Of a DNA stretch of 64,000 nucleotides, positions 3,425 through 57,992 are shown in pieces. The notes under the pieces are model-generated. The model had not been told where the DNA came from, searched no databases, and was given only the letters and a program-made list of their open reading frames with translations. Position numbers and translations under genes: made by a program. How positions within the stretch are numbered: position 1 is the first letter of the stretch; each line of letters begins with the position of its first letter. This stretch comes from Meghimatium bilineatum (taxonomy: Eukaryota > Mollusca > Gastropoda > Stylommatophora > Philomycidae): NCBI GenBank assembly GCA_034231615.1, contig CM067299.1, positions 13,817,863 through 13,881,862 of the forward strand. Reading direction: 5' to 3'.

Positions 3425-3595
3425 CGCCGAAGACGGATATGTCGGGCTAATGGTGCAAATTAAATGGCGATACAATGAATTTCCATTCTCTGGACTACAT
3501 CCTGCTAGAAATCTAGTAGGATCATGGTCCTGCTACAAGAGAGATCCAGAAAGAGCTTGAGAATGAACACAGAAGAAGAAGAAGAATAGATGTAA
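3425..3595 (+). repeat. dispersed repeat family A, 3' half with GAA tail
   Basis: Contains CCATTCTCTGGACTACATCC, then GAGAATGAACACAGAAG and a tail of GAA triplets. The same order is seen at 42900-42985 (+) and, reversed, at 33585-33765. The A-rich simple tail is what a retroposed element would carry. Confidence 0.65.
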
Positions 3596-3658
3596 CATTT
3601 TATACGTCTCTGAGCAATATAGAGCAGATGTAACATTAGATACTTTTCATATATTTAT

Positions 3659-3662
<4 letters not shown>

Positions 3663-3694
<32 letters not shown>
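3663..3694. repeat. (TC)n microsatellite
   Basis: About 16 uninterrupted CT dinucleotides. Confidence 0.95.
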
Positions 3695-3698
<4 letters not shown>

Positions 3699-4149
3699 CC
3701 ATTGCACAATGTCATCATGTTGTGCTTAATGCAGTTACATTGACTATAACGTACCTTTCTAACACAGGGACTGTCAATTCATTAGTCTTTAGTAAACAAT
3801 TAAGGGTGGAATGAGTCTTAACTATTTACACAGTTGTTGACAGAGTGGGGGTGGCAAAAGTTGACGTCAAGAAAATGGATTTTTATACACCAATTAAATT
3901 GAAATTGTGTGAATATGAAGGGAAAAATAAACAGAAAAATAAAAAAAAATAATGTCGCTTTAGTGGACCTTGTTTGCTAAAAATATTTTGTAGAAAGGAG
4001 GGGGAGTGGGGATTAAGCAGGGGAATGTCTCCTGGATTTTTCACAAGCTTTTGACAACTAGGAGAGATTGGAGGGGTTCTTGCCGATAAAGAGTAGACAT
4101 AATTTATGGACAGTTCTACCCCCCCCCCCCCCCTGTATAAACCTGTATA
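3695..4149. other. no feature recognised
   Basis: Unique AT-rich sequence ending in a run of about 15 C at 4121-4134. Confidence 0.6.
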
Positions 4150-4740
4150 ACAAATTTACAAATTTAAATATTTGGGCACAATTATTACTTCAGATGGTAC
4201 ATGCGTCACTGAGATAAAAAAAAATCGAACAGCACAGGCAAAAGCAGCATTCGAGAAGATGAGGAACATCTTGTGCAATATATCATATCAATGGAAGTAA
4301 TAAAGAATATACTAAAGTGTTACATAGATCCCATACTGTTATATGGTAGTGAAGCATGGATAATTGACAATATTGCAAGAAAACATCTGGAGGCAATAGT
4401 GATGTGATTTTATAGAAGAATGTTAAAAATATCATGGACAGCTAAAAAAGAGTAATGCTATAATTCTACAACTGGTCAACTCAAATAGAGAACTTATTAA
4501 CTGTATTAGAAGACGACAATCACAGTTTCTGGGTCATGTCATGTGAAGAGGTGGGCTAGAGAACATCGTTACAACTGGAAAGATCGAGGGTAAGAGAGAC
4601 AGAGGAAGATAACGTGAGAAAATGGATGGCTTGACAGCCTGGCATGATGCAGAATCATCAGAAACTATATTTAAATGTATAACAAACAGAGGGCTATGAA
4701 GAGACATGATCGCCTACTCCGGAAGGTATGTTTCCAATGA
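4150..4740 (+). mobile_element. non-LTR retrotransposon fragment, reverse transcriptase C-terminal region (pseudogene)
   Basis: Translation in broken frames gives KYLGTIITSDGT, then RTAQAKAAFEKMRNIL, YGSEAW, FYRRMLKISW and RELINCIRRRQSQFLGHVM, followed by a tail segment ending in a RDMIAYS-like string. This order (YLGS-like, YGSEAW, RRxL, LGHVMR) is the standard post-polymerase C-terminal part of LINE-type reverse transcriptases. Stops and frameshifts make it inactive. Only the 3' end of the element is present, as expected from 5'-truncated insertion. The clade cannot be fixed from this. Confidence 0.8.
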
Positions 4741-5225
4741 ATGAATATCATACATGTTTATCTTACCAGTATAAATTAGCCGTAGACTTCCACATAAAAA
4801 CATCGTTTCAAGATTACTTCATATTCTGTGGGTTTTTTTTTCTAATCAATTTGTTCTTGTATCACATATTTTTCCTACCGCCTTCATCGCTTCCTTTACC
4901 ATAAATTTGTTTCTGTTGTTGAAAATATGTTTCGTTTTGTTCGAATTGTTCAAGAAATATTGCAAATATAAGATTTGAATCTCTTTTCTTGCTGTGATTA
5001 TTGTGCACATGTGTCAGTATAACAATAAAATACCAATGATACATGTCTAATAAATCGTTCTCTGAAAGGTTGAGAAGGTGTAGAGGATTGACTTCATTGT
5101 ATTCGGGTTACATCATATGCACTATGTCCTTCTGAACAGAACGGCACAACTTCATAGCTTCAAGCGATAATCCCTAGGGATCTCCAAAGGAAATCCACTT
5201 TATAAACAGGACATGTCATGCTCAT
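4741..5225. other. no feature recognised
   Basis: Unique AT-rich sequence without supported coding potential. Confidence 0.6.
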
Positions 5226-5345
5226 CTTCGTTTGCGAAGGAGGAACAACATCATCATCATTTATACTCTCGCATCCTCATCATTTATACCCTCACATCCT
5301 CATCATCTATACTCCCACATCCTCATCATTTAAAATCTCACATTC
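5226..5345. repeat. short degenerate repeat, about 25 bp x 4-5
   Basis: Units of the form CATCCTCATCATTTATACTC with small changes. Confidence 0.7.
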
Positions 5346-5548
5346 TTATCATGCAAATGATTACTTACAACATACATTTTTCTATTAGCGAATGATAAAT
5401 TACATCATATTTCTCTCTTATGCAGATAACATAAATAGTGTATGTGTGTGTGACGATAATAAAATTGATAATAATAAATTATAACATAACTAGTTATATG
5501 AAGCAACACTAAGTGATAACAAATAATTATCCTAGGCAGTGGGAAATT

Positions 5549-5985
5549 ATGACATAACTTATTATGTAAGGCAACAATAAGTTAGAACATAACTAATTAT
5601 GTAAGGCAACAATAAGTTAGAGCATAACTAATTATGTAAGGCAACAATAAGTTAGAACATAACTAATTATGTAAGGCAACAATAAGTTAGAGCATAACTA
5701 ATTATGTACGGCAACAATAAGTTAGAACATAACTAATTATGTAAGGCAACAATAAGTTAGAACATAACTAATTATGTAAGGCAACAATAAGTTAGAACAT
5801 AACTAATTATGTAAGGCAACAATAAGTTAGAACATAACTAATTATGTAAGGCAACAATAAGTTAGAACATAACTAATTATGTAAGGCAACCATCAGTTAG
5901 AACATAACTAATTATGTAAGGCAACCATCAGTTAGAACATAACTAATTATGTAAAGCAACCATCAGTTAGAACATAACTAAAACA
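5549..5985. repeat. 35-bp minisatellite, about 12 copies
   Basis: Near-identical units built from GTTAGAACATAACTAATTAT followed by GTAAGGCAACAATAA. The last three units change AATAA to CATCA, which marks one edge as a separate variant block. Each unit holds a donor-like GTAAGG, but no adjacent exon is recognised. Confidence 0.95.
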
Positions 5986-6061
5986 TGACCATTATCCCCA
6001 CCCCACTAATTGTTGACGTAATTTAGGGGCAGCTGCTAAATCGTACAAAATCGTAAAAAAT

Positions 6062-14522: not shown

Positions 14523-14615
14523 ATGAGTTTCGACATCGATCTGAGAGCTGCCAGAGAACGCGCTTTTGCACTGCTAAAGGAGCAGGATGGATGGAAACTA
14601 TCTTCAAAGTCGAAT
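14523..14615 (+). CDS. START gene exon 1 (residues 1-31)
   Basis: Starts at the first ATG after the TATA-like box and codes MSFDIDLRAARERAFALLKE followed by QDGWKLSSKSN, the N-terminal helix of the START fold ending in the conserved GWK. The donor is AAT|GTAAGT and the phase is 0. Confidence 0.85.
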
Positions 14616-17895: not shown

Positions 17896-19669
17896 CGTTA
17901 ATATTTGTTAAATTGTGCTTATTATGAAGTAAAATGTATTAATGTTTTTTAATTGAAATCTGTTTCTTTCAAACTTAGGAACATTGGAAAATCGAGTCCA
18001 AATTATCAGATAAACTAAACTGTAGCATGTAAGTACGATGTTCTAAAATTGCATAATCAATCGACTCAACGATTCAGTCGATCATGCTGAGTGACGTTGT
18101 CGATCATGTTTCTGCAAAACTCCGCATCTTGTGTTGTAATAAGTTCATTAAGTGACATTATCTTGTGCCAACCTGAAAACACATTCGTCAACGTTTTTGT
18201 TTGTATTGGTCCGTCACGTCTTCTCTTGACTTTTATATTTCTTACTAAATGTTCATGTTCTTCTCTCAATTACATAATCTTAAAATCTTGATTGCTTCTG
18301 AATTTTTGCAATAATTTGTCTTTAGAACATCTTAAGAGTACAACAATCATTAAGCAGTAGTAGTTTTTTTATCCAACGATTAAGCAGTAGTAGTTTTTTA
18401 TCCAACGATTAAGCAGTAGTAGTTTTTTATCCAACGATTAAGCAGTAGTAGTTTTTTATCCAACGATTAAGCAGTAGTAGTTTTTTATCCAACGATTAAG
18501 CAGTAGTAGTTTTTTATCCAACGATTAAGCAGTAGTAATTTGTATCCAACGATTAAGCAGTAGTAGTTTTTTATCCAACGATTAAGCAGTAGTAGTTTTT
18601 TTATCCAACGATTAAGCAGTAGTAGTTTTTTATCCAACGATTAAGCAGTAGTAGTTTTTTATCCAACGATTAAGCAGTAGTAGTTTTTTTATCCAACGAT
18701 TAAGCAGTAGTAGTTTTTTTATCCAACGATTAAGCAGTAGTAGTTTTTTATCCAACGATTAAGCAGTAGTAGTTTTTTATCCAACGATTAAGCAGTAGTA
18801 GTTTTTTATCCAACGATTAAGCAGTAGTAGTTTTTTATCCAACGATTAAGAGACTTCAAAAATTGTGTTGATAGGCCTATTTTTCTCGCCTCGCAGTTTA
18901 TTTTAAAATTCGTGATACTATTGTACGATTAATGGATGTGGAGCATGGAAAGTAAACCCCAAAAAATTGAAACAGAACTGGGTGCAACAGAGATGTGGTT
19001 TCTAAGAGGAATGATGACAATACCATGGACAGGTAAGAAAATTAATGCAGAGGTTCTCATTGACGCTGGAGTAAAAAGATCAATCACATCAAATATTAGG
19101 GGCAGACAGTCAAGGTTTCTAGAGCATGTGCTGAGAAGAACACAGCTTGAACACTTAATACCCACTGGAAAGATCAAGGGCAGATGAGACTGACAAGAAT
19201 GAAGAGAGACGTTGTTAGATGGACTTGTATTGTGGCATGGTAGAAGTTCACCAACCGAGTTTATTGACAAAGCAAGAGACAGAGAGTTGGGGAGAAACAT
19301 AATCGCTAACGCCACTCGGCATGACACTTGATTGATTGATTGATTGATTATACTTTACATGTTCCCTTTCTCCTCTTTGAATTTTTGTCATTGCTAATGT
19401 TGTCCAATTTAATCAGAGGGGAGATTCATAAATAAATAAAATAAAATTACCCCTCAACTCAGACATGACCATCTACTATATAAGACCTACTTGTCAATTA
19501 GTAATCAAACCTTGTTCATGATTTATTTAACTATTTCCGTCATTTTCAATGGTAACTACCTTATACTTTGTATGACAACCAATGAAAATAAATGGAATAC
19601 TCAAATTTGTCATTTTAGAATGTGGATTTCCAAATAATTAATAGGTCTTATACTCAGATGTACAATTCC

Positions 19670-22700: not shown

Positions 22701-25339
22701 ACTAAAGTAATACAAGCCAAAGAATTTAAATATCTAAACAACAATTCTTCCGAAAATGGAAGACTGGACAGAGATATAGAAACAAGGTGCTAGAATGCAA
22801 ACACAGTGACCTACCAACTTTTACCATTACTTCTTCACCCAAAGATCAAGAAAGAAATAAAACAGAACAGATAATATCTAAAAATTTTATACCAACACTC
22901 TGCTACCAATTTCAAACATCCTAGCAGCAGAGGAAAATTGTTACATGTGAAATGAAGTGTCTGAGAAAAGCTGCAATGGTTACTAATCTAGGAAAAAAAA
23001 AGAAATGAAGACATTAGGAAAAGAGTTGGTATAATATCATGTATTGAGTATATTGAGACAGCAAGTAAAATGGTTCTGCTCTGGCACAGTTTCATCCACT
23101 CCCTCCCACCTTTTTCCAAAAAATGATACATGGAAATAGAGATTACGTTTAATTGAACATGTTCACACATTAACATACATATACAAACTCGACGTTTTGA
23201 CTAAAATGCATTCATCGACGTTGGAACAGATAAAAATGAGAATGTGAGGGTGACCTTCTGTTTGTGCGAAGTCTATAGCAGTATTCCAACAATAGCATGC
23301 CATGGGAAATTCTACACGACACAGTACAAGTATCCACGTATTCACACAAAATCCCATTGTGGACAATTGTACGGGATATTTGTCATTGTCATTACTGCAC
23401 TTATTCTGTTAAGGAGCACAGAGAGATAGTATTCTGTTCTGTGTAACAAAGATCGTATACCCTGGAATATGTCCACGACATGTACAGGGAGGGCAATTTT
23501 ATTTACTCTCATGCAGAAAAAATAATAAAGTCATTATCAGGAGTCAAACCCCATACCTCATGAGTGTGAGGCCAACGTAATATGCGCAATATGTACATAA
23601 CAAGGCGAAATGAAAACGTGTACCTGGAAGACAAAATTACATGTTATACACCATCAAAGTGTCCAAGAGAAACGTACATAGGTGTGTACAAGTATACAAG
23701 TACATGAAACTGTAAAGAGAGTGTTGAGAAAAGCAACATATGCATTAGTATGTTCCTTAAGGAGTGATATACACGTATTTTTAATAAAGTTTATGAAATC
23801 TGTCGTACTCACTAATATTCTATGTGATACTAATGGTACTATTGTTTATGTAAAATAGCATTGTTAACAATATGTAATGTAACATCACATTCAACTAATA
23901 ACAGTGATACTAATTTTACCATTATCTGAAATGAATAGATACAGAGCTGTACACACTGTTAAAGCCCCCATTGATGTTGTGAAGCAGACACTCAACTTCC
24001 TGCCTGGAGGACGTCGTCGGGAGTGGGACCCTGACTTTAAGGAACTCATACTTCTCAAGCAGATTAACGATGTCTGTATTCTGTGTTTGTTACGATGTCT
24101 GTATTCTATGTTTGTTACGATGTCTGTATTCTATGTTTGTTACGATGTCAGTATCCTATGTTTGTTACGATGTCAGTATTCTATGTTTGTTACGATGTCT
24201 GTATTCTATGTTTGTTACGATGTCTGTATTCTATGTTTGTTACGATGTCAGTATCCTATGTTTGTTACGATGTCTGTATTCTATGTTTGTTACGATGTCT
24301 GTATTCTATGTTTGTTACGATGTCTGTATTCTATGTTTGTTACGATGTCAGTATCCTATGTTTGTTACGATGTCTGTATTCTATGTTTGTTACGATGTCA
24401 GTATCCTATGTTTGTTACGATGTCAGTATTCTATGTTTGTTATGATGTCTGTATTCTGTGTTTGTTACGATGTCAGTTACGATGTCTGTATTCTATGTTT
24501 GTTATGATGTCTGTATTCTGTGTTTGTTACGATGTCTGTATTCTATGTTTGTTACGATGTCTGTATTCTATGTTTGTTACGATGTCAGTATTCTATGTTT
24601 GTTACGATGTCTGTATTTTATGGTTGTTACGATGTCAGTTACGATGTCTGTATTCTATGTTTGTTACGATGTCTGTATTCTGTGTTTGTTACGATGTATG
24701 TATTCTATGTTTGTTACGATGTATGTATTCTATGTTTGTTACGATGTCAGTATTCTATGTTTGTTACGATGTCAGTATTCTATGTTTGTTGGTTCTTGTC
24801 TCGCTCTAACGTTATATGTTACTTGTCAGATGGGGGAGAAGGGTGGGGGGGGGGGTGTCTGTTTATAGAAAGCAAATATGTTTCTCGCCATTGAAGTGGG
24901 AAATGCGGAATTAAGTATGTTTTTTCATTACCCAGTAACAAACTTAGGAGTGTTGTGGTCAGTACTATATCTACTGTCTTTACGTTCTAAGAACATTGAA
25001 GAGCTGAACAAGCAGTGGGTGAAGGAAATCATGGATTGACAACATCAAGGAGTTCGCGGACCTGATTTCTACATACTCGTCTGCGCCGCTGACTACGTAA
25101 GAAAATAGATATCTATGTGTTGATGCATCCACCAATGCTCCCGTACAAGAATAACGTGTTTTATGATATACTACTACTTAGGGCCGTGCCGTGCTATTAT
25201 GTAGATAGGCAGCTGCATTCGGCTGGCGGCAACAATCAAAATACATATAAGGGGCGGTATTTCGAAGAAAAACCTTTCAAGGCCGGGGAGGCATTTCGAA
25301 GAATTGCATCATGCTGAGAAAATCTACCACACTTTCCTG

Positions 25340-25424
<85 letters not shown>

Positions 25425-28400
25425 ACTACTACTACTACTACTACTATTATTATTATTATTATTACTACTAGTAGTAGTACTGCTACGTCTGTTACTACTA
25501 GTAGTAGTTAATAATAATACTACTGTTACTACTGTTAATACTGTTAATACTACCATTACTACTTCAATACCATTGCAACTACTACTACCAACACTCCAAA
25601 CCAACACTATCACCAGAAAAACAACCACAATCCCTACTACTACAACTACCACTAATAGACCCGTACTTTCCCAGAAGTTTTTTGCACCAATTTCCTCAGG
25701 TTGGATTGACCTAGAAGTCAGCATTTAAAAAAGAATATTCTTCTTTGTAATAGAAATTGAACATTGAATCACTGAACTAGGAAGTTATTGCTCTAACCAC
25801 TGAGATACCGACAGATAGAATGATTATTTTGAAGGATGTTACAAGATGATACACACCAAGAGATAGAGATTGGTTTGAGAACCCCTGTATTGTGAGAACC
25901 CCTGTATTGTTGTATTGTAAACATTCATTTTGGAGATGCCATGAATGTAATGTTAATGTTAAGAGTATTGGAATATTTACACAGCAGAGATTGTTTAGAA
26001 AAAGAAGTGTCAAAGATTGTGTCATCACTTTGTATGGTAAAATCCTGGTATACAAGTCAGATGAAATAATGGGAGGATTGAAAAGAAAGTTGACATTAAT
26101 TTCAAGAGTCGAATGAAGACAGTATTAGAAATGTGGGACGAAAGTGGGAAGAAATGGAACATTTGTGATAATTGGTAAGAGATGACAGATCACAATGTGA
26201 GAAAGGGAAATGGAAGGACGGCCAAAACTTAATGTTAGAATTAACGTGGAAATGACTGAAGAACATTGTAAAAGCTGGAAATTGAAGAGAATGTGAGGAA
26301 AGAGAGAGAGAGAGAGAGACAGAGAGGGATAGAGAGAGAGAGAGAGTTAGGTGAAAACAATTTGAGAATATTTGTTTGTGGAAGAAATAATGACGTCTGT
26401 GATTTGTAGGGGAGGGAATACATAGACACAAATACGAAAGTTTAAGTCGTACGATAGTAAACAACAGTGCAAAAATTAATTAGATTCATACTTTTGGCAA
26501 CACTTTCCTGCAATCTAACGGCATGATGCAGTTAACAGGGGTGATTTAGTCCAAGTAGTCCAGGCATGGTGCAGTTAACAGGGGTGATTTAGTCCAAGTA
26601 GTCCAGGCATGGTGCAGTTAACAGGGGTGATTTAGTCCAAGTAGTCCAGGCATGGTGCAGTTAACAGGGGTGATTTAGTCCAAGTAGTCCAGGCATGGTG
26701 CAGTTAACAGGGGTGATTTAGTCCGAGTAGTCCAGGCATGGTGCAGTTAACAGGGGATGATTTAGTCCGAGTAGTCCAGACATGGTGCAGTTAACAGGGG
26801 TGATTTAGTCCGAGTAGTCCAGGCATGGTGCAGTTAACAGGGGTGATTTAGTCTGAGTAGTGGAAACATGGTGCAGATGCATGTTTCATGACACGAGGTG
26901 AGTCAACTTCACGCCCAAAATCTTACTGTTCTTTGCTCTCATTTGGAGCCCCGATAACCCTCAGCAACAGCAGGGGAAAAATTAATCGATGTGGTTTCAT
27001 TCGGCCAGAGAGAACAATGAGAGACAATGAGTAATGATAACGACCAGCAATAAATCTGAGAAGTACAGACGCTATCTTTACCTGATCTCACCTGAAGTAT
27101 TTACACCATATATATATACATATATATACACACACACAAAGACACAAGGATAATATTAGCAGCCACACGTAACCAGAGATATACAACAACGGTAATGTTA
27201 TTTATGTCAGGTAGTATATCTATAGTTGTACGAATATACAGACTGTTTTCTTACAGACTGTGTTCTTACAGTTTTCTTACAGATTGTGTTCCTACAGACA
27301 GTTTTCTTACAGATTGTGTTCCTACAGACTGTTTTCTTACAGACTGTGTTCCTACAGACTGTTTTCTTACAGATTGTGTTCCTACAGACTGTTTTCTTAC
27401 AGACTGTTTTCTTACAGATTGTGTTCCTACAGACTGTTTTCTTACAGACTGTTTTCTTACAGACTGTTTTCTTACAGATTGTGTTCCTACAGACTGTTTT
27501 CTTACAGATTGTGTTCCTACAGACTGTTTTCTTACAGACTGTTTTCTTACAGACTGTTTTCTTACAGATTGTGTTCCTACAGACTGTTTTCTTACAGACT
27601 GTGTTCTTACAGACTGTTTTCTTACAGATTGTGTTCCTACAGACTGTTTTCTTACAGATTGTGTTCCTACAGACTGTTTTCTTACAGATTGTGTTCCTAC
27701 AGACTGTTTTCTTACAGATTGTGTTCCTACAGACTGTTTTCTTACAGACTGTGTTCTTACAGACTGTGTTCTTACAGACTGTTTTCTTACAGATTGTGTT
27801 CCTACAGACTGTGTTCTTACAGATTGTGTTCTTACAGATTGTGTTCCTACAGACTGTTTTGTTACAGACTTCTGGCAGACTGTATTCTTACAGACTGAGT
27901 TCTTACAGACTTTACACTAACAGACTGTGTTTTTATGCACTGTTCTTATAGTCTGTGTTCTTACAATGTGTTCTTACAGACTGTTTTTACGGACTGTTCT
28001 TACAGTTTGTATTTTTACAGACTTGTTACTTTCTGTGAAAACACAAACTAAAATTAAGCTTGTTTACTATGTTCTGCATGATTACACAAACCTGAGACAT
28101 TTTTGCTTTTGTCCATAGAACACAATTGTGTACGTAACCCGAACAAACCCAATTGCTAAAGGCCTGATTTCTCCCCGAGAGTTCATTAACATCGCTACCT
28201 GGGAAGATACACCTGACTCTTGGCTTGTAATAGGTAAGTGCTCCTCTCTCATCCATTATGATAAGTTGGCTGCTGTTTGAATATCCCTACATACCTTCTC
28301 CTCACCCCCCCCCACACGCATTGTGTCATATCATATGTTTACAAGAACTCGCTAATAATTAAAACTGCGATTACTCTGTGTTTCCGTTCCCCACAAGGTG

Positions 28401-30929
28401 AGTAACGAATAGTAGCACTTGACCGGTTCAATGTGCTTTGATTATCGCACAAGTAAACGATACGACGTCATTTGGAAAATTCCTAAAATTTAGGTCAGCT
28501 AAAGTAAAACAGAGTGTGATCCAGACTTAAGGGTAGAAGCATGACATGTCTCCAGCTGTGACTGTCGGCAGTATAGAAGCATAACATGTCTCCAGCTGTG
28601 ACTGTCGGCAGTATAGAAGCATAACATGTCTCCAGCTGAGAATGTCCGCAGTATAGAAGCATGACATGTCTCCAGCTGAGAATGTCCGCAGTATAGAAGC
28701 ATGACATGTCTCCAGCTGAGAATGTCCGCAGTATAGAAGCATGACATGTCTCCAGCTGAGAATGTCCGCAGTATAGAAGCATGACATGTCTCCAGCTGAG
28801 AATGTCCGCAGTATAGAAGCATGACAGAGTGGATCGAAATGTTCCTGAGGGTCCATATACATCACTTTGGCAACCTATTGTATGTAATCTTATATTTCAC
28901 TTTTGATTCATAGGATATACATTATGTGTTCATATCGAGCGAGACAGGTGATAAAGAAGAACATTTATTTCAGTTTTAGACATTTCCTTCAATATTAACA
29001 TTTTGCATGTTTAATATTTTATTGCCATCTTTACTTTTCTTCTGTCCCAGGTTGTGGAACCGATTTTCCAGGTTTCCAGGTAGATGAAAGTTTTGTTCGA
29101 GGAATCAGTGGAGTTATGCTCATGAAAGTCGAGAAAGATTCTAGGTAAGTATTAATTCGTAAATAGAAAGATTCCAGGTAAGTATTACCTCGTAGATAGA
29201 AAGATTCCAGGTAGTAATTCGTAGATAGAAAGATTCCAGGTAAGTAGTAACTCGTAGATGGAAATATTCCAGGTAAGTAGTAACTCGTAGATAGAAAGAT
29301 TCCAGGTAAGTAGTAACTCGTAGATGGAAATATTCCAGGTAAGTAGTAACTCGTAGATAGAAAGATTCCAGGTAAGTAGTAACTCGTAGATGGAAATATT
29401 CCAGGTAAGTAGTAACTCGTAGATAGAAAGATTCCAGGTAAGTAGTAACTCATAGATAGAAAGATTCCAGGTAGTAACTCGTAGATAGAAAGATTCCAGG
29501 TAAGTAGTAACTCGTAGATAGAAAGATTCCAGGTAAGTAGTAACTCATAGATAGAAAGATTCCAGGTAGTAACTCGTAGATAGAAAGATTCCAGGTAAGT
29601 AGTAACTCGTAGATAGAAAGATTCCAGGTAAGTAGTAACTCGTAGATAGAAAGATTCCAGGTAAGTAGTAACTCGTAGATAGAAAGATTCCAGGTAAGTA
29701 GTAACTCGTAGATAGAAAGATTCCAGGTAAGTAGTAACTCGTAGATAGAAAGATTCCAGGTAAGTAGCAACTCGTAGATAGAAAGATTCCAGGTAAGTAG
29801 TAACTCGTAGATAGAAAGATTCAAGGTAAGTAGTAATTCGTAGATAGAAAGATTCCAGGTAAGTAGTAACTCATAGATAGAAAGATTCCAGGTAAGTAGT
29901 AACTCGTAGATAGAAAGATTCAAGGTAAGTAGTAATTCGTAGATAGAAAGATTCCAGGTAAGTAGTAACTCGTAGATAGAAAATTTCCAGGTAAGTAGAA
30001 CTCGTAGATAGAAAGATTCCAGGTAAGTAGTAACTTGGAGATAGAAAGATTCCAGGTAAGTAGTAACTCGTAGATAGAAAATTTCCAGGTAAGTAGTAAC
30101 TCGTAGATAGAAAGATTCCAGATAGTAACTCGTGGATAGAAAATGTCCAGGTAAGTAGTAACTCGTAGATAGAAAGATTCCAGGTAAGTAGTAACTTGGA
30201 GATAGAAAGATTCCAGGTAAGTAGTAGCTTGGAGATAGAAAGATTCCAGGTAAGTACTCGTAAATGGAATGATGACTGTGGTTTTGTGTAGATTTTAACC
30301 CATTCCCCGTTTGAAAACGGAATATGACATTAGTATAAATAAACAAACAGAATATTAGGTAACCCCTGTCTTCTTGGCGGTTATCCCAAAATAAAATCAT
30401 CAGAAAACCCCAAAACGTGAAAAGAAAACTGTATTCTTGTTAACTGTACAAAAAAAACTGTACTCGTATGTAGGACAACAAAATATAATAGTATGCTCCT
30501 GAAAAATGTGTCAATTTTCCCACCTCATGGAACAATGTACAGTATATGGTTACATGGAACAATGTACAGTATGTGATTACATGAAACAGTGTACAGTATG
30601 TGATTACATGAAACAATGTACAGTATGTGATTACTTGGTACAGTGTACAGTATGTGATTACATGGAACAGTGTACAGTATGTGACTACTTGGTACAGTGT
30701 ACACTATGTGATTATTTATACAAATGTACAGTGTGTGATTATTTAAAACAGTGTACGTCAATATTCGTTAAATATTTTGAGTACTCATAAAGCCAGTAAA
30801 TATATGGCCTGAAGATAAATATCGTGGAACTAACAGAAAAAAAGGAAATTGAGAACACATAGGAACACTTGAAGAGAGCAGAAAGTTCTTGACAGAGGCA
30901 AGACTCACATGGAGTGTGAATGAGTACAT

Positions 30930-30969
<40 letters not shown>

Positions 30970-32203
30970 AGAAAATTGAAAGTACATAAACTATACATCC
31001 TTGGATGCAAACACACCGAGGAGGAAAGGGGAGTGACAAAGGTTTTATGATAAATATACAATGTATGTGCACCGTTTAGCACGAAACTTGTCAAATTGTA
31101 TCTATCTTTAGTGTATCTTTTTAGCAAGTTATACAAATGTGTCTGTACAGCGCATAAGCTGATACTTATTGCTTGCAAGCAATCTATAGTCGTTACTGTT
31201 AACAATGATCATGAGAGAAGAGATGATATTAGTATGGGAGAAGAGTTGATATCAGTATGGGAGAAGAGTTGATATCAGTATGGGAGAAGAGTTGATATCA
31301 GTATTGGAGAAGAGCTGATATCAGTATGGGAGAAATCTGACAACAAATGTTACTTCCTTACCTGAGATTTCTGTGGGCGATGCTGTTCATGAGGATTCTA
31401 AGCTGTTATTGGGACTTTATTATCACATTTTTCTCAATGAAAACGTGAGAGGAAAACTAAGTGTGATTAGCCAGTAAGTTACAGGAACATTATGCATGCC
31501 TATCTTTCATTCTGTGGGAGTGACTATCCACCTGTACGTTTTCTTAAAATCCAAATATAACTGTTCACAAACTGTATAACTGTTCACATAAAACCCATTT
31601 TACACTCAAAATGTTTCTATTCACTCCAAACATATTTTATGTGTCTATTTTGTTTATTTCTGTCCTTGAAATTCTACCACTCTAATATAAATATATCATA
31701 GTATTGTATATATCTAACTGTATATTCAACAATTGTTGCATATATCAAAATCTCTAGTAAATTAGTTAAGTATCTACATCTCTAGACACAATTTTTGTCA
31801 TATATCTACATCTCTAGACACAATTTTTGTCATATATCTACATCTCTAGAGTCCATTTGTTCATATATTTTAAAGAATATGATTTATACTTGACCAATAT
31901 GTTGAACTTGTCACAATTGTAGATATACAATTGTTCAATGTGTCACACTGTTACACTTGAATCTATTCTACAATAAAATAAACACTATTTTCTTCTCGTA
32001 AAGTATTAACTGATACGGTGTTATCAATAATATTTTATACTTCCAGCAAACCAGGATATATACGCGTGACTACAATAACCGAGATGGACATTAAGGGGAA
32101 GATACCACGATACCTACTAGACTCCACTATACCGGGTGTACTGGTCACATCTTTCGGTACATGGAGAAAATTCCTAGAGAAAGAAGGCCACCTCAAATCA
32201 TAA
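14523..32203 (+). CDS. START-domain lipid transfer protein, six exons, 213 aa (gene span)
   Basis: Six exons (14523-14615, 17979-18028, 23939-24071, 28119-28233, 29051-29144, 32047-32203) join with consistent phases to 642 nt, coding 213 residues plus stop. START proteins bind one sterol, phospholipid or other lipid in a closed cavity and move it between membranes. Seen here: W77-D78 in REWDPDF, a YVTRT strand at about 97-101, ISPREF at 109-114, an FVRG turn at about 145-148, and a C-terminal amphipathic helix (about 188-208) that in the family lids the cavity. There is no signal peptide, mitochondrial leader or membrane segment. Length and architecture match the small soluble STARD4/5/6 group, but the exact subfamily and ligand are inference. 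The introns carry splice-site-like minisatellites. Confidence 0.9.
14616..15578. other. START gene intron 1, first part: no feature recognised
   Basis: AT-rich intron sequence with CT-rich and poly-C/poly-A runs near 14870-14895. No supported coding frame. Confidence 0.6.
15579..15703. repeat. 27-bp repeat x 4-5 in intron 1
   Basis: Near-identical units of GTGATATATCTCATGGG plus TCAGCCAATT. Confidence 0.9.
15704..16276. other. intron 1: no feature recognised
   Basis: AT-rich unique sequence. Confidence 0.6.
16277..16482. mobile_element. 206-bp hAT-like MITE
   Basis: The left end CAGTGTTTCCCAACTTGGGG and the right end, read inward as CAGTGTCTCCCAACCTTTG, form imperfect terminal inverted repeats of the CAGTG-CCCAAC type common in hAT elements. 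The flanking 8-mers GTCTTCAT and GTCTGTAC agree at only part of their positions, so the target duplication has decayed. The interior is noncoding with long G runs. Confidence 0.65.
16483..17419. other. intron 1: short simple repeats only
   Basis: Includes a short TA run near 17155-17172 and (CA)n at 17224-17241. No coding region is supported. Confidence 0.6.
17420..17840 (+). mobile_element. non-LTR retrotransposon 3' fragment in intron 1
   Basis: Codes VAKYGCETWTLSKTATKKIN, then FELKCYRKILRISWKEKF (the YGCETW...RKxLxISW block). It is followed by an out-of-frame GRPRRRR-like tail and then a (CA)n tract. Inactive, same strand as the host gene. Confidence 0.8.
17851..17892. repeat. (CA)n microsatellite
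   Basis: About 20 CA dinucleotides following the retrotransposon scrap. Confidence 0.95.
17979..18028 (+). CDS. START gene exon 2 (residues 32-48)
   Basis: Acceptor CAAACTTAG|GAA. Codes EHWKIESKLSDKLNCS plus two bases (AT) of the isoleucine 48 codon. The donor is AGCAT|GTAAGT. The phase fits exon 3 exactly. Confidence 0.8.
18060..18275 (-). mobile_element. non-LTR retrotransposon 3' scrap
   Basis: The minus strand codes WHKIMSLNELITTQDAEFCR and then NMIDNVTQHD. This resembles the final coding residues of LINE-type elements (WxxxxxNELxxxxxDREAWRxMxANVxxH). Truncated and inactive. Confidence 0.6.
18346..18850. repeat. 29-bp minisatellite, about 17 copies, in intron 2
   Basis: Units of TTAAGCAGTAGTAG plus TTTTTTATCCAACGA, nearly identical and differing mostly in the T-run length. 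Young array. Confidence 0.97.
18905..19330 (+). mobile_element. non-LTR retrotransposon 3' fragment in intron 2
   Basis: Codes KIETELGATEMWFLRGMMTI and then RSITSNIRGRQSRFLEHVLR with a LEHLIPTGKIKGR tail (the MWFLRRMxRI and RQxxFLGHVMR blocks). It ends in the shared 3' segment with GAAACATAATCGCTAACGCC and GGCATGACACTT, then a GATT repeat tail. Confidence 0.8.
19331..19349. repeat. (GATT)n tail of the preceding retrotransposon
   Basis: About five GATT copies directly after the element's 3' end. Confidence 0.85.
19676..19706. repeat. (GA)n microsatellite
   Basis: About 15 GA dinucleotides, with one AA interruption. Confidence 0.9.
19764..19960. repeat. 17-bp minisatellite, about 10 copies, in intron 2
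   Basis: Units of TCACTGATCATACAATG, perfect in the first half and diverged at the right end (GATCAGACAAAG). Confidence 0.92.
19965..21289. other. intron 2: no feature recognised
   Basis: The segment 20170-20740 is less AT-rich than its surroundings and may be an old interspersed repeat, but no family is recognised. Several overlapping open frames lack support. Confidence 0.5.
21290..21640. repeat. degenerate repeat, period about 30 bp
   Basis: Repeated strings such as CACTGTGTCC, CATCTTGTGTCCCAC and CCTAGCACT recur in varying order and spacing. Old, decayed minisatellite. Confidence 0.7.
21650..22049. other. intron 2: no feature recognised
   Basis: AT-rich unique sequence. Confidence 0.6.
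22050..23150 (+). pseudogene. decayed non-LTR reverse transcriptase in intron 2
   Basis: Broken-frame translation recovers QLSPSQFGFKSCTDALFTVN (RT block with QFGFR and TxDA), a DHEKTIDRVD-like remnant, ADD at about 22540 (polymerase block C), ACQKYNMKINVQKTD and later C-terminal scraps. Many stops and frameshifts are present. It is the longest retrotransposon remnant in the START gene and covers fingers, palm and part of the thumb. Confidence 0.75.
23151..23938. other. end of intron 2: mostly unrecognised, with a tRNA-like scrap
   Basis: At 23525-23590 the minus strand has CCTCACACTCATGAGG, an anticodon-arm-like hairpin, followed by a GGGGTTTGACTCC T-arm-like segment. This suggests a decayed tRNA-derived SINE. 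The rest is unassigned. Confidence 0.4.
23939..24071 (+). CDS. START gene exon 3 (residues 48-92)
   Basis: Completes the isoleucine 48 codon (AT plus A), then codes YRAVHTVKAPIDVVKQTLNF and LPGGRRREWDPDFKELILLK, ending QIND in phase 0. The acceptor (GAATGAATAG|A) has a poor pyrimidine tract and the donor (GAT|GTCTGT) is weak, but phase and protein alignment fix both. The donor is the first unit of the 25-bp array. Confidence 0.85.
24072..24790. repeat. 25-bp minisatellite starting exactly at the exon 3 donor, about 29 copies
   Basis: Each unit is GTCTGTATTCTATG plus TTTGTTACGAT. The first begins with the exon 3 donor GT, and every unit ends in ACGAT, the last five bases of exon 3. So each junction repeats ACGAT|GTCTGT. 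Two short units (GTCAGTTACGAT) are deletion variants. Because 25 is not a multiple of three and no stop occurs, all three + frames stay open for hundreds of bases. Confidence 0.95.
24986..25105 (+). mobile_element. non-LTR retrotransposon 3' scrap in intron 3
   Basis: Codes NIEELNKQWVKEIMD and, after a frameshift, WIDNIKEFADLIS. This resembles the short terminal coding segment of some LINE-type elements. Family assignment is tentative. Confidence 0.4.
25335..25480. repeat. (TAC)n microsatellite with decayed flank
   Basis: About 35 TAC copies with two TAAC slips, grading into TTA and GTA triplets. Degenerate ACT-rich sequence continues to about 25650. Confidence 0.95.
25735..25815 (-). repeat. 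tRNA-like SINE remnant in intron 3
   Basis: The minus strand reads GGTATCTCAGTGGTTAGAGC, a near-perfect D-arm with A box, then a TCCTAG-containing arm and TTCAATGTTCAATTTC in place of the T-arm. No acceptor stem closes it. It is most likely a tRNA-derived SINE head, or a decayed tRNA pseudogene. Confidence 0.5.
25816..26514. other. intron 3: no gene recognised, includes (GA)n
   Basis: (GA)n runs at about 26298-26346. The open frames here are low-complexity. Confidence 0.6.
26515..26875. repeat. 43-bp minisatellite, about 8 copies, in intron 3
   Basis: Units of CATGGTGCAGTTAACAGGGG, TGATTTAGTCC and AAGTAGTCCAGG. The left copies carry CAAG and the right ones CGAG, marking two sub-blocks. Confidence 0.95.
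26876..27234. other. intron 3: no feature recognised
   Basis: Unique sequence with a short TA/CA run at 27108-27138. Confidence 0.6.
27235..28022. repeat. 15-bp minisatellite of acceptor-like units, about 50 copies, upstream of exon 4
   Basis: Units alternate between TTTTCTTACAGACTG and TGTTCCTACAGACTG or ATTG forms. Each is a pyrimidine tract followed by YAG|A, the consensus for a 3' splice site. The array ends about 95 bp before the true exon 4 acceptor. Fifteen is a multiple of three and no stop occurs in the body, so all + frames are open. Confidence 0.95.
28119..28233 (+). CDS. START gene exon 4 (residues 93-131)
   Basis: Acceptor TTTTGTCCATAG|AAC, phase 0. Codes NTIVYVTRTNPIAKGL, ISPREFINIATWED and TPDSWLVI, with one base of glycine 131. 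It contains the START-family SPREF motif. Donor ATAG|GTAAGT. Confidence 0.9.
28520..28828. repeat. 40-bp minisatellite, about 8 copies, in intron 4
   Basis: Units of AAGCATGACATGTCTCCAGC plus TGAGAATGTCCGCAGTATAG. The two left units carry TGACTGTCGG instead of AGAATGTCCG. Confidence 0.95.
29051..29144 (+). CDS. START gene exon 5 (residues 131-162)
   Basis: Acceptor TTCTGTCCCAG|GT completes glycine 131. Codes CGTDFPGFQVDESFVRG and ISGVMLMKVEKDS, with two bases of serine 162. The donor TCTAG|GTAAGT is strong. Using any later donor in the adjoining array would read AGG TAA, an immediate stop. Confidence 0.88.
29145..30258. repeat. 33-bp minisatellite of fused acceptor-donor sites starting at the exon 5 donor, about 34 copies
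   Basis: Each unit runs GTAAGTAGTAACTCG, TAGATAGAAAGATTCCAG, so successive units meet at TTCCAG|GTAAGT. The 13 bases before each junction (AGAAAGATTCCAG) match the last 13 of exon 5 (AGAAAGATTCTAG) at 12 positions. A few 29-bp units lack the AAGT of the donor. The array starts at the first intron base. Confidence 0.97.
30525..30758. repeat. 27-bp repeat, about 9 copies, in intron 5
   Basis: Units of CATGGAACAATGTACAG and TATGTGATTA. The 27-bp period leaves frames open on both strands, with no domain. Confidence 0.92.
30930..30966. repeat. (GA)n microsatellite
   Basis: About 17 GA dinucleotides. Confidence 0.93.
31205..31335. repeat. 23-bp repeat x 5-6 in intron 5
   Basis: Units of GAGAAGAGTTGATATCAGTA plus TGG. 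Confidence 0.9.
31336..32046. other. end of intron 5: AT-rich, with a 30-bp triplicate
   Basis: At 31784-31860 ATATCTACATCTCTAGA recurs three times with an ACAATTTTTGTC spacer. Otherwise unrecognised. Confidence 0.6.
32047..32203 (+). CDS. START gene exon 6 (residues 162-213 and stop)
   Basis: Acceptor ATACTTCCAG|C completes serine 162. Codes KPGYIRVTTITEMDIKGKIP, RYLLDSTIPGVLVTSFGTW and RKFLEKEGHLKS, then TAA. This is the last beta strand and the C-terminal helix of the START fold. Confidence 0.9.
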
Positions 32204-40250: not shown

Positions 40251-41285
40251 TCATTCATAAATGTTCTTCTGAGCGTTGTTTTTGGTCTGCCCTGTTTTCT
40301 TTCCCGTCTGGTGTCCACATGAAGGCTTGTTGTGGAATTATGTTTTCCTTTATTCTATGTATGTGGCCGATGCATGTCCAGCGGAGTTTTCTGATGATGT
40401 TCGTCGCATGTTCTTGTTTTGTCTCCTCTCTTAGTATGTCGTTTGATTTGAAGTCTTTCCAATTAGTATTTGTGATTTTTCTGAAGTATCTATTCTCGAA
40501 GGCAACTAACTTACTATCAATTATTGCGGTAGATTTCCAACTTTCACATCCATATGTCAATGATGGAATCACACTTGCATTGAAATGTCGCAGTTTGATG
40601 TGTTTACTTGCGATCTTCGTTCTCCAGATGTTTGAGAGTTTGTTAAAGGCGCTGGAGGCGAGAGCGATTCGAGTCTTGATTTTTGAGTTGGTATCCTCGT
40701 CTGTTGTTATCTTGCTTCCCAAATATACAAATTTTGAAACGTTGTCTAGTATATTATCATCTAGTTTAATTGATTCTGTCAGGCCGATAAAGTTCATGAT
40801 TTTAGTTTTATGCGTGTTTATTTGACGGCCTATCTGCTGTGCAAAATATTTGAGTCTTTCTGTGTTTTTTTCTTGGAAATCTTGGTGTGTTGAACTCAGG
40901 AGAGCAATATCATCTGCGAAGGTTAGATCTTCCAGGGTCTTGTTGTTTACCCAATTGATTCCTAGCTGTGTTTGGCCTGTGCATTTTCTCATCACCCAGT
41001 CAATCGCGATGCAAAACTGTATTGGGGGCAAAACACATCCTTGTTTTACTCCCGCTGTTACTGGGAACCAGCTGGAAAAACCACTTTCTGTTCTTACACA
41101 GCAAGCCATCTCGGAGTAAAAAGATTATATGATATATTGATGTATTTCGTAGGGATGCCGTAAAGCGTAAGAATTTTCCAGAGAGATGGTCTGTGAAGAC
41201 TATCGAAAGCCTTCTGGAAATCTACAAAATAAATAAGAAAGCCTTCTCCATAATTTCTGGTGTGTTACGCAGTTAAATACATTGG
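40251..41285 (-). pseudogene. non-LTR retrotransposon reverse transcriptase, best-preserved fragment
   Basis: A 284-codon minus-strand frame (41109 to 40255) carries SGFSSWFPVTAGVKQGCVLP at about residues 9-28, the polymerase motif FADD at 64-67, KTKIMNF, VYLGSKITTDEDTNSKIKTR, IALASSAFNKLSNIW, YGCESWKST, RYFRKI and LRWTCIGHIHR. Upstream of 41109, after a frameshift, FVDFQKAFDSLHRPSLWKIL supplies the first catalytic aspartate block. So palm and thumb are nearly complete, but the fingers, the endonuclease and the 3' tail are missing. LINE-type, clade not determined. The most recently active-looking element here, yet frameshifted. Confidence 0.88.
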
Positions 41286-52865: not shown

Positions 52866-53264
52866 GCTATATATATATATATATATAACATTCAAACTTT
52901 CATCTCAGTATTATATATTGTTTTGCTGTTGGTGCTAGACGTGTTCCGTGTTTGATTCTGACTTTCATCTCAGTATTATATATTGTTTTGCTGTTGGTGC
53001 TAGATTTGTTCCGTGTTTGATTCTGACAGCCAAGAATTAATTCTACGTAATTTTTCATATTTGTAAACTTGGTATTTAATGCTTTATCCTCATAAACCTC
53101 AACGGCTGTGGTTCGCTGAATCACGACCTCCATTATTTTGTACGGTCTAAAAGCTATAAAATTGGATTCACGTCCGGGGTTGTAAGGATTGTACTTCATC
53201 ACAAGGAGTACAATTTAAATGGTCAATAGTTGTCCAGCTGTATTGCAATTTCAGTTTTCCCTAC

Positions 53265-53375
53265 TGTTATCTATTGTCTTTCCCAAGATGATTGATAGTT
53301 GCTCGTATTCACACTTGCCGTTAAGCGTATGGGTGGGAGGGTCGTCTCAGCTGTCGTTCCAAAGCAAGATGGCGG
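53265..53375 (+). repeat. dispersed repeat family B
   Basis: ATCTATTGTCTTTCCCAAGA, CACACTTGCCGTTAAGCGTA and GCTGTCGTTCCAAAGCAAGA match 7482-7660. It is duplicated at 56825-56945 as part of the large duplication. Confidence 0.6.
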
Positions 53376-53985
53376 TGATTTCATACTTATAATTGATTCG
53401 ACGCAACAAAGAGTGTTGTCCATTTTAAAAACAAAACCGGAAATGTAGTTCATCTGTAGGGCCTACCACTTTATCGAATCTCTATCCGGCTGTACTGCTC
53501 TATTTGAAATAACTTCATTTATATCAGATAATGAAACGTTTTCAAGATGTTGGATATGTCATATTTCGCGAATGAGCTCCGTTAAAAACTTGTCCGTTAA
53601 AAACGTTTTCTTAAATGTAAATCTATTGTCTCAACGAATTTTTGGATCAGAGTACTTTTTCACCCAACCAATGTCTTGCAAGTTGAAATAGTTCATAAAA
53701 CTAGCGTCACGTTCATTACTTGAATAAGAAAATAGTTCACAACTACAGCAAAACATTTGATAAAGATCTCTTAGTTGATACCCTGTTGTATGCGTTCTTT
53801 CCGTGTGTTTCTAGTGACATTTATTAATGGGATTATTTCATTTTCCTATATTTCAAATTTTCGCTTTCTGAATCTGTAAGAGGAGATTTGCTATTAATTG
53901 ATTTGTTGTGTGGTCAACCGTATACACAGAATAATAGTTTTCGGTAGCTATAAATCAACAAACGAACTGCACATTTTAGTTTTAG

Positions 53986-54096
53986 TCTGTTGAAACTAAG
54001 AACCTCTATAATAATTGTCAAGAAGTGAATTATGAGTTTGGAGATTTGTGCAATCTATTTTTGAGAATTAATAACCAGACAAAATACACTTGTAAG
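53986..54096 (+). CDS. possible exon in duplication copy 1, unidentified gene
   Basis: Between TTTTAGTTTTAG and the donor AAG|GTAAGA an open 111-bp segment codes SVETKNLYNNCQEVNYEFGD then LCNLFLRINNQTKYTCK, phase 0. Its copy at 57553-57663 differs at three bases, all synonymous in this frame. The following candidate exon at 54448 is frameshifted in this copy by a 4-bp deletion. No family recognised. Confidence 0.35.
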
Positions 54097-54175
54097 GTAA
54101 GATTACTCGTTGTTTCTCTGTGTTACTGGGTGAAAATATACATATGAAAGCTTAAAAATAAACCTTGTACAAGGA

Positions 54176-54181
<6 letters not shown>

Positions 54182-54273
<92 letters not shown>

Positions 54274-54276
54274 TTA
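54182..54276. repeat. (TA)n microsatellite specific to copy 1
   Basis: A long TA tract where copy 2 has only a few TA dinucleotides. Confidence 0.95.
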
Positions 54277-55479
54277 TAACGCATACATATAAAACTGTTG
54301 CCAGCCCTGCCACGCCAAGATGTCAAGCTATACAGTATATTGCCTTTTTGCATTTATGTGACTCATTTCCCCTCAACGTTGCTTGCCTGTCGCTACCACA
54401 TTTTCCAAAGATACTCTCGTAGTGATTCTTAATTATTTTTTTAACAGGAACCAGCATCATTGCACAAGGGTCGTTTTCAAAAACACTCTGTCATTTCATG
54501 GGCCATTTAAAAGTTTATAAAATCAGTGTCCGTCAGTCGTTGATTGTAGATATTTCCGGTCATTCCAGTGAGGACAGACTCCCCCTTATCCCCTGGTCAC
54601 TCTCATGTCTATCATTCTCTGAGCTTGTACATTATCTATTTATGCATCCTTCTCATCCTTGTGTTACATCTGTCACCGAGTTACAGCGTGCCGGTTTCCA
54701 CACAATGTTTGAACAAAATAAAATTGTCCGAGTCGTGGTTTCTTGCCTGACGCTACTCCAGTCGATTAGCTGTAAATGGGTACCTGGCGCATGAGTTAGG
54801 GGAGGAAAAGACAGAAAGAAAGGAAACTGGGAACTTCACCTAATATTTCTACGTGGGGAGTTGATGAAGAGTTGTCTTCATCCCAGACAGTGGATTGTTG
54901 CCAAGGGAACTACCTTTACCTTTACATCTTTGTACAATATATCTAAAACTGCTATAATTAATTCAGCCCTATCTCTTTTCACCACTATGTCAACCACTAC
55001 AGCGTTACAAGCCAATGCATCAGTTCTTTCACTACCACTGACTTCCGCATATCCTGGACAGTATATACACTATTATCATTGTGTGGTTAATAAATGTGAA
55101 TTGTTCTTTTTTCTTACATCGATAAGAAACTTCATGTTAGTGGCAATCTCCTTTAGTAAGAATTTTCTCGTTAGCTTTCCATGTTATCTATTGCTCATTA
55201 GTTTTCCGTGTCTATTGTTATTACAGCATTTTTACTACATTTCTGGGAGCTCTTTGTTTCCTATTTGAGATGTTTATTCGTGTATTATCCATGATTTTCT
55301 TCCATAAAACATAATTACCTCTTTTTATGCATTAATAACGTTCTTCTACATGTGTTTCTAATTACTGTTTGTCTTGCAAAAATAAAACAACATATGTATG
55401 TGTTTTAGTCATATTGATTTTTATATTTACAGTTGTGATGGTGTGTTCATGTTTTATATTTGCCTCTGTTAGTCTTTTA

Positions 55480-55620
55480 CTGCTGAAATAATAGGTATTT
55501 TGTCGAACTGGACAATCTCTGACTGCTTGACATAATAGGTATTGTGTCGAACTGGACAATCTCTGACTGCCTGACATAATATGTATTTTGGCAAACTCGA
55601 CAATCTCTGTGACTTCTGAC
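55480..55620. repeat. 46-bp repeat x 3 in duplication copy 1
   Basis: Units of ATAATAGGTATTTTGTCG, AACTGGACAATCTCTGACTG. Copy 2 (59040-59125) has one unit fewer. Confidence 0.85.
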
Positions 55621-56156
55621 ATCCCCTCTCATTTTCATAAATTTAATACATTTCAGTTATGACGCCCCTCAGGATTGATTTTATCGCCAGCAACCGGACA
55701 GCGGACGCGGTCTCCCTTAGCTAATTTAGCCTCTGGTCTGTCTGTGTTGTAGCTATGAAGACTTGTCCATCTTCTGCGAATAGAGTCATTAGAGAATGAA
55801 TAAATGAAACTTAATCTCAGTCTTCAATGCAGCATTAATCATACCCTCTTTATCACGTTCGATCTGTTACAGGAGTGATGTTTAGTTCAACGAAAGAGAC
55901 CGAGTCTTACAAACAGCTCGTACAGTAATACTGACAGAATAGCAAGGGTTGTCAAGTTTATTTTCTCTCTGTCATGGTTGCCAGATGGTTGGAATTGTTT
56001 ATGCCAAATTGTTGGCAGCAAATTGCAAAGTATGGTCAAATTTCAAAATTGTGCATAAACTCTACTAATAACACCTAGAGTTTTCAAGAATGTTACCTTT
56101 CTAAAAACATGTATTAGGTCTCTCTAATTATCAACATACATTGATTTTACAATGAG

Positions 56157-56256
56157 NNNNNNNNNNNNNNNNNNNNNNNNNNNNNNNNNNNNNNNNNNNN
56201 NNNNNNNNNNNNNNNNNNNNNNNNNNNNNNNNNNNNNNNNNNNNNNNNNNNNNNNN
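56157..56256. other. assembly gap of exactly 100 N
   Basis: A fixed 100-base run of N is a conventional placeholder for a join of unknown size. Confidence 0.99.
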
Positions 56257-57552: not shown

Positions 57553-57663
57553 TCTGTTGAAACTAAGAACCTCTATAATAATTGTCAAGAAGTGAATTAT
57601 GAGTTTGGAGATTTGTGCAATCTATTTTTGAGAATCAATAACCAGACAAAATACACATGCAAG
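57553..57663 (+). CDS. possible exon in duplication copy 2, unidentified gene
   Basis: Same peptide as 53986-54096. ATT/ATC, ACT/ACA and TGT/TGC are the only differences. It joins in phase 0 to the segment at 57993 through a 329-bp intron with GTAAGA and TTTTTTAACAG borders. Confidence 0.38.
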
Positions 57664-57992
57664 GTAAGATTACTTGTTGTTTCTCTGTGTTACTTGGTGA
57701 AAATATACATATAAAATCTTAAAATAATCGTTGCACAAGAAACATTGTATATATATTTATAACGCACACATATGAAAGCTTAAAATAAACGTTGTACAAG
57801 GAACATTATATATATATATTTATAAGGCATACATATAAAACTGTTGCCAGCCTGCCACGCCAAGATGTCAAGCTATACAGTATATTGCCTTTTTGCATTT
57901 ATGTGACTCATTTCCCCTCAACGTTGCTTGCCTGTCGCTACCACATTTTCCAAAGATACTCTCGTAGTGATTCTTGATTATTTTTTTAACAG

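What the first reader, a model, noticed from the sequence alone, without database searches (positions are those of the whole stretch)
29145..30258. Tandem array of about 34 fused acceptor-donor sites beginning at a real 5' splice site
Units of the intron 5 minisatellite meet at TTCCAG|GTAAGT, the motif of a zero-length-exon recursive (ratchet) splice site. The array starts at the first base of the intron. The 13 bases before each junction copy the last 13 bases of exon 5 with one change, so the array seems to have grown by duplicating the exon 5 / intron 5 boundary. Each copy keeps exon-side and intron-side donor context, so the splicing machinery is offered dozens of near-equal donors. Using any copy other than the first adds AGG TAA, an immediate stop. 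The array could therefore be tolerated only if splicing favours the first donor, removes the array stepwise, or if array length tunes the yield of full-length message. Array structure is seen; the splicing consequence is inference.
Basis: partly seen in the sequence, partly recalled or inferred. Interest (0 to 1): 0.88.

Follow-up and report, generated by a model that had tools for sequence, protein, structure and literature searches.

The report
Splice-donor repeats at snail exon ends
In a genome that looks like a land snail's, short repeats have grown out of the exact point where an exon ends, offering the cell dozens of copies of a splice signal of which apparently only the first gives the right protein, so it is a natural experiment in how cells choose splice sites.

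Summary
The array is real. 34 units follow the true exon 5 donor (29145); 30 of 34 keep GTAAGT, 28 the ideal CAG|GTAAGT. The gene is a six-exon START-domain gene of 213 codons that aligns without a gap to a land-snail protein, so the first donor is the coding one; the other 34 junctions each cut the protein to 162 residues. Such arrays are "mirages", known from amphioxus (PMC3087553, PMC3902484, passages read). The ratchet reading is weak: the units lack a pyrimidine tract. Genome-wide, three perfect donors in tandem occur at 827 places against 309 for the backwards motif, or 21 against 7 distinct arrays in about 262 Mb. One of the other 20 follows a homology-confirmed exon end (COMMD2). Against a general trend, 68 donor-like sites showed no enrichment of arrays (1 against 0.53 expected). 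Best reading: growth by slippage, hidden from selection because the 5'-most donor is used. No RNA evidence was available.

The parts
14523..14615 (+). exon 1 (start codon at 14523), donor AAT|GTAAGT
   Evidence: tblastn of the Bradybaena N-terminus; joined frame
17979..18028 (+). exon 2, donor CAT|GTAAGT
   Evidence: tblastn; joined frame
23939..24071 (+). exon 3 of the START domain, weak donor GAT|GTCTGT at 24072 (1.3 bits)
24067..24790 (+). second donor array: 25-bp unit, starts 5 nt inside exon 3; 29 copies of the donor after the real one (GTCTGT, GTCAGT, GTATGT)
   Evidence: TRF; listing; 9 of 29 would keep the frame
28119..28233 (+). exon 4, donor TAG|GTAAGT
29051..29144 (+). exon 5, ends AGAAAGATTCTAG
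29132..30256 (+). the array of the finding: last 13 nt of exon 5, the real donor at 29145 and 34 further junctions, mostly 33 bp apart (four units of 29, one of 32)
   Evidence: TRF; unit listing; unit alignment
29145..32046 (+). intron 5 (2902 nt), whose 5' end is the array
32047..32203 (+). exon 6, coding part with stop TAA at 32201-32203
   Evidence: profile and tblastn hits; sequence; joined frame

Best explanation
The array is a donor-side mirage: a minisatellite that began when 13 exon bases and about 20 intron bases at the exon 5/intron 5 boundary were duplicated in tandem, and that then grew by slippage or unequal exchange in blocks of one to three units. Growth is hidden from selection because a duplication across a donor leaves the first copy of the exon end intact. 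If the spliceosome pairs the exon's acceptor with the nearest downstream donor (exon definition), the first donor is used and all later copies leave with the intron. Shown: gene model, exon ends, anatomy of the array, a second array at another donor of the same gene, truncation by every later junction of the first array, and more donor arrays than backwards-motif arrays in the genome. Inferred: slippage origin, use of the first donor in RNA, near-neutrality.
For: Six exons give 213 codons that align without a gap to a 213-aa land-snail protein only if the first donors are used. 34 of 34 later junctions truncate. Two arrays start 13 and 5 nt before donors; two or more of five donors so hit in 0.28% of relocations. 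Blocks of two and three units recur, and the first unit and the remnant past the last donor share GTAAAT where all units between have G at that column. Donor triples exceed backwards triples, 827 to 309 places and 21 to 7 arrays in the same 262 Mb (p 0.013). One of 20 other such arrays follows a COMMD2 exon. Published mirages did not disturb splicing in the amphioxus cases reported (PMC3087553, PMC3902484, passages).
Against: No RNA data. In 68 donor-like sites array starts were not enriched (1 against 0.53 expected) and arrays spanned fewer of these sites (3 of 68) than of control positions (67 of 408). 15 of the 20 other donor arrays show no clear exon by my test. In array 2 the first donor is among the weakest copies (1.3 bits against up to 5.3), which makes its use less certain.
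Confidence: 0.7

Rival explanations
1. Recursive (ratchet) splicing: each TTCCAG|GTAAGT works first as acceptor and then as regenerated donor, so the intron is removed stepwise.
For: Every junction reads CAG|GT except one, and removal of whole units regenerates a donor; a branch-like TAGTAAC lies in most units (sequence).
Against: Acceptor scores -5.4 to 0.3 for 34 junctions against 0.8 to 14.3 for the real acceptors; 4-6 pyrimidines of 15. Intron 5 is only 2.9 kb.
Confidence: 0.06
2. Expression tuner: a share of transcripts uses later donors, stops at AGG TAA and is destroyed by nonsense-mediated decay, so that array length sets the yield of full-length message.
For: All 34 later junctions stop at once; most are as strong as or stronger than the real donor; predicted structure leaves 25 of 34 more accessible than the real donor.
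Against: No expression data. The donor core is neither protected nor eroded: 3 of 19 hand-counted events in 9 of 33 columns, p 0.31. Array 2 does not share the logic, since 9 of its 29 later donors keep the frame.
Confidence: 0.15
3. Coincidence: a minisatellite-rich genome in which some arrays must abut donors; nothing about donors matters.
For: About 14.5% array cover in sampled loci; array starts at 68 donor-like sites as expected by chance (1 against 0.53).
Against: Two of five donors in one gene (0.28%); three-fold excess of donor-motif arrays over backwards-motif arrays; a confirmed exon end at one of 20 others.
Confidence: 0.2
4. U1 platform: the many donors recruit U1 and suppress premature polyadenylation in the intron.
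For: 28 ideal donors at the start of the intron; three AATAAA in intron 5.
Against: Introns 1 and 2 hold 5 and 10 AATAAA and no array at their donors; array 2 has weak donors.
Confidence: 0.03

Closest known systems
Amphioxus 'mirages' (Adh3, globins BflGb6 and BflGb9, troponin C; similar repeats in PGBD5); PMC3087553 and PMC3902484, passages read
   Same: Minisatellite-like tandem duplication across an exon-intron boundary, many units with AG/GT, length instability, reported not to disturb normal splicing
   Different: Here a probable gastropod; 34 further junctions, mostly ideal donors; two arrays at donors of one gene; signs of a genome-wide class. Splicing and length variation untested here
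Intron gain by tandem duplication of AGGT segments (Rogers model; potato RdRp, fission yeast 24-bp repeats as cited in PMC4974935, passages read)
   Same: Tandem duplication that multiplies AG|GT
   Different: Here the reading frame fits an existing intron whose 5' end was multiplied; no new intron is needed. Age of the intron not tested
Human introns from tandem arrays (Zhuo 2007, title seen in a reference list; content recalled)
   Same: Minisatellite units carrying splice signals
   Different: Not read; comparison recalled only
Recursive splice sites (ratchet points; recalled)
   Same: CAG|GTAAGT junction
   Different: No pyrimidine tract; tandem copies 29-33 nt apart in a 2.9-kb intron

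Membership tests
Mirage (boundary minisatellite) | tandem units that span an exon-intron boundary | tested here: met
   TRF array 29132-30256 holds 13 nt of exon 5 and the donor
Mirage (boundary minisatellite) | units carry the AG/GT signal | tested here: met
   33 of 34 later junctions keep AG|GT
Mirage (boundary minisatellite) | normal splicing continues | not testable with these tools
   no RNA reads; the gap-free protein alignment only fits it
Mirage (boundary minisatellite) | length instability between alleles | not testable with these tools
   one assembly only; block structure suggests past turnover
Recursive (ratchet) splice site | functional acceptor with pyrimidine tract before AG|GT | tested here: not met
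   34 junctions score -5.4 to 0.3 as acceptors; real ones 0.8 to 14.3
Recursive (ratchet) splice site | strong donor regenerated at the junction | tested here: met
   30 of 34 keep GTAAGT
Recursive (ratchet) splice site | intermediate lariats or nascent junctions | not testable with these tools
   no RNA data
Intron gain by tandem duplication | intron absent from relatives | not tested
   the Bradybaena protein is known, its gene structure was not available
START-domain protein (host gene) | Pfam START above the curated cut-off | tested here: met
   PF01852, 68.4 bits against cut-off 22; nearest solved structures STARD3

The most novel reading that the evidence does not exclude
Splice donors are a genome-wide nursery of minisatellites: a duplication across a donor is hidden from selection because the spliceosome takes the 5'-most donor by position rather than by strength, so arrays sprout from exon ends into introns. 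In array 1 and at COMMD2 the first donor is weaker than the usual later copy, and in array 2 it is weaker than some later copies (scored for arrays 1 and 2; judged by consensus for COMMD2); in L071, L076 and L088 it is the same CAG|GTAAGT.
Probability: 0.3. Interest if true: 0.72.

Novelty: new member of a known kind. Interest (0 to 1): 0.5.

Why it matters
How a spliceosome picks one of several near-identical donors has been studied mostly in short artificial duplications (recalled). Here nature supplies arrays of about 30 donors, one set near-ideal and one weak, in the same gene; in the near-ideal set every later donor truncates the protein. Ordinary RNA-seq could test position against strength directly. 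It also suggests that boundary minisatellites, which I know only from lancelets under the name mirage, occur in a gastropod-like genome, perhaps at dozens of exon ends: the excess over the backwards control extrapolates to roughly 86 donor-motif arrays, of which an unknown share lies at exons.

Tried and rejected
Ratchet splicing: not favoured, on acceptor strength. Hiding of decoys by RNA structure: not seen in array 1 (25 of 34 decoys more accessible than the real donor), but in array 2 only 3 of 29 are. Erosion or protection of decoy donors: not seen. General enrichment of arrays at donors: not seen in 68 sites. L009 (90-bp donor array on C10): no exon recognised by eye. Rfam at gathering threshold and tRNA scans of the window: nothing. 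Pfam on seven candidate translations from fetched loci: no family. The first protein search, with a 115-aa query, found nothing; longer relatives were outside its length range. Upstream exons were first missed by a donor scan and then found by homology. The acceptor-motif triple (TTTTGCAGG) and the AAGGTAAGT triple did not complete, so whether acceptors show a like excess is unknown. Donor and acceptor scores use matrices recalled by me and are crude. The permutations used slightly wrong exon coordinates; one search is the corrected one. The acceptor values printed for exons 2 and 3 were misplaced and are replaced. The land-snail genome paper PMC8496239 (passages) said nothing on boundary repeats in the passages shown.

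Full report
What is there. The window lies in a 1.61-Gb, 32-contig genome at C2:13817863-13881862. The finding sits in a START-domain gene on the + strand. I read exons 3 to 5 from the sequence and Pfam confirmed them; a START profile found exon 6, and a homologue found exons 1 and 2. The six exons give 213 codons. The one database relative at E 0.001 or better is a 213-aa protein of the land snail Bradybaena similaris, 73% identical over the 166 residues searched; the full proteins align without a gap. The source is therefore probably a land snail or near relative (inference from one hit). Pfam gives START at 68.4 bits; the closest solved structures are STARD3.

The array. TRF places it at 29132-30256 with a 33-bp period. 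It starts 13 nt inside exon 5. After the real donor TTCTAG|GTAAGT come 34 copies: 28 CAG|GTAAGT, 2 AAG|GTAAGT, 3 CAG|GTAGTA and 1 without GT; 27 are exactly TTCCAG|GTAAGT. A two-unit block alternates through units 3 to 8, and a pair of variants recurs three units on (units 20-21 and 23-24). The first unit and the remnant beyond the last donor share GTAAAT, where every unit between has G at that column. This is what growth in place from the exon 5 boundary would leave.

Consequence of another donor. All 34 later junctions add AGG TAA and cut the protein to 162 of 213 residues. The gap-free relative therefore fits only the first donor. Use of that donor in RNA is inferred, not shown.

A second array in the same gene. 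A 25-bp array (24067-24790) begins 5 nt inside exon 3. After the real but weak donor GAT|GTCTGT (1.3 bits) come 29 copies, some stronger (GTCAGT 4.2, GTATGT 5.3). Nine of the 29 would keep the frame. With the 20 arrays of this gene relocated at random, arrays start within 13 nt before two or more of the five donors in 0.28% of trials.

Why a ratchet is unlikely. As acceptors the 34 junctions score -5.4 to 0.3, the five real acceptors 0.8, 6.6, 9.1, 10.6 and 14.3. The matrices are recalled and crude, and the weakest real acceptor is close to the best decoy, but the missing pyrimidine tract is plain in the sequence. Predicted RNA structure gives no single answer: in array 1, 25 of 34 decoys are more accessible than the real donor; in array 2, only 3 of 29 are. 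The donor core is neither protected nor eroded: 3 of 19 hand-counted events in 9 of 33 columns.

Genome scale. Three perfect CAGGTAAGT in tandem occur at 827 places; the motif read backwards gives 309. Large arrays count many times, so I counted arrays: the listed places run through C1, C2 and 3.56 Mb of C3, about 262 Mb, and hold 21 distinct donor arrays including this one, against 7 for the backwards motif (p 0.013). I fetched the upstream flanks of the other 20. One (L083) follows an exon that matches COMMD2 (PDB 8f2r, E 2.2e-11). Its 35-bp repeats start 12 nt inside the exon, at a first donor CAA|GTAAGT, and lie in two blocks, 137-369 and 835-1151 of the locus; the stretch between was not examined. 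Another (L088) resembles an ABC transporter only weakly (pgp-1, E 0.58). A test for an acceptor of at least 10 bits and an open frame up to the first donor passes 4 of 20 (L071, L076, L080, L088, two of them at exactly 10.0) against 4.8% of 1,892 random positions (p 0.014). At 8 bits it is 5 of 20 against 12.6%, at 12 bits 0 of 20 against 1.2%; the cut was not fixed beforehand. L083 itself scores 4.3, and two loci gave no donor near the array start and count as failures. So 15 of 20 show no clear exon.

Evidence the other way. Of the first 100 of 216 TTCCAGGTAAGT places, 27 are this array and 3 the C10 cluster (L009). Of the remaining 70 I took 68 (two on C10 were not fetched). One of the 68 (L025, a receptor-like exon by my reading, no Pfam family) has an array starting within 13 nt before the donor, where 0.53 is expected by chance. 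Arrays span 3 of the 68 sites against 67 of 408 control positions. So arrays do not prefer donor-like sites in general; what is in excess is arrays that carry donors. Not all 68 sites are real donors, since the backwards control gives 87 places to 216.

What is known. Tandem duplications of exon-intron boundaries, many units with AG/GT, are described in amphioxus as mirages (PMC3087553; PMC3902484; passages read). The first paper reports them for Adh3 and two globin genes, with length instability and no interference with regular splicing. Intron gain by tandem duplication of AGGT segments is a related idea (PMC4974935, passages). The original Adh3 paper and Zhuo 2007 were not held. In ten full-text searches I noticed no report of mirages outside lancelets, but several listings were capped (12 of 43, 12 of 135, 15 of 29 shown) and most papers were seen only as listings, so this is weak evidence of absence.

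Conclusion. A real, donor-anchored minisatellite of a known kind in what is probably a new lineage, with an unusually large number of near-ideal donors, a second case in the same gene and signs of a genome-wide class. It makes the choice of donor by position or by strength testable with ordinary RNA data.

Noticed in passing
27237-28027: A 15-bp array near the 3' end of intron 3 offers 52 YAG sites that score 1.2 to 12.0 (mean 6.6) as acceptors, against 10.6 for the real exon 4 acceptor. It ends 91 nt before exon 4. The same intron thus starts with a donor array and nearly ends with an acceptor-like one.
   Followed up: partly
52902-59656: Two near-copies (93.9% over 2.7 kb and 97.4% over 0.6 kb) flank a 100-N gap at 56157-56256: unresolved haplotypes or a tandem duplication.
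   Followed up: partly
1-64000: 59 TRF rows in 64 kb, many with 15-60-bp units; a very minisatellite-rich stretch.
   Followed up: partly
40255-41121: Reverse-transcriptase reading frame on the - strand (PF00078, 46 bits), relatives in many environmental and animal sequences.
   Followed up: partly
24067-24790: The 25-bp array is open in the exon 3 frame to 24809, so in-frame use of later donors would insert 25 or more residues into the START domain rather than stop it.
   Followed up: partly
L025 (C3:4017200-4021200), donor near the centre: Two-copy 52-bp duplication that starts 10 nt before the end of a receptor-like exon; the second copy no longer reads AG|GT.
   Followed up: partly
L009 (C10:35469500-35475500), 2827-6001: 90-bp array with TTCCAGGTAAGT in many units that runs off the fetched stretch; no exon recognised at its start.
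   Followed up: partly
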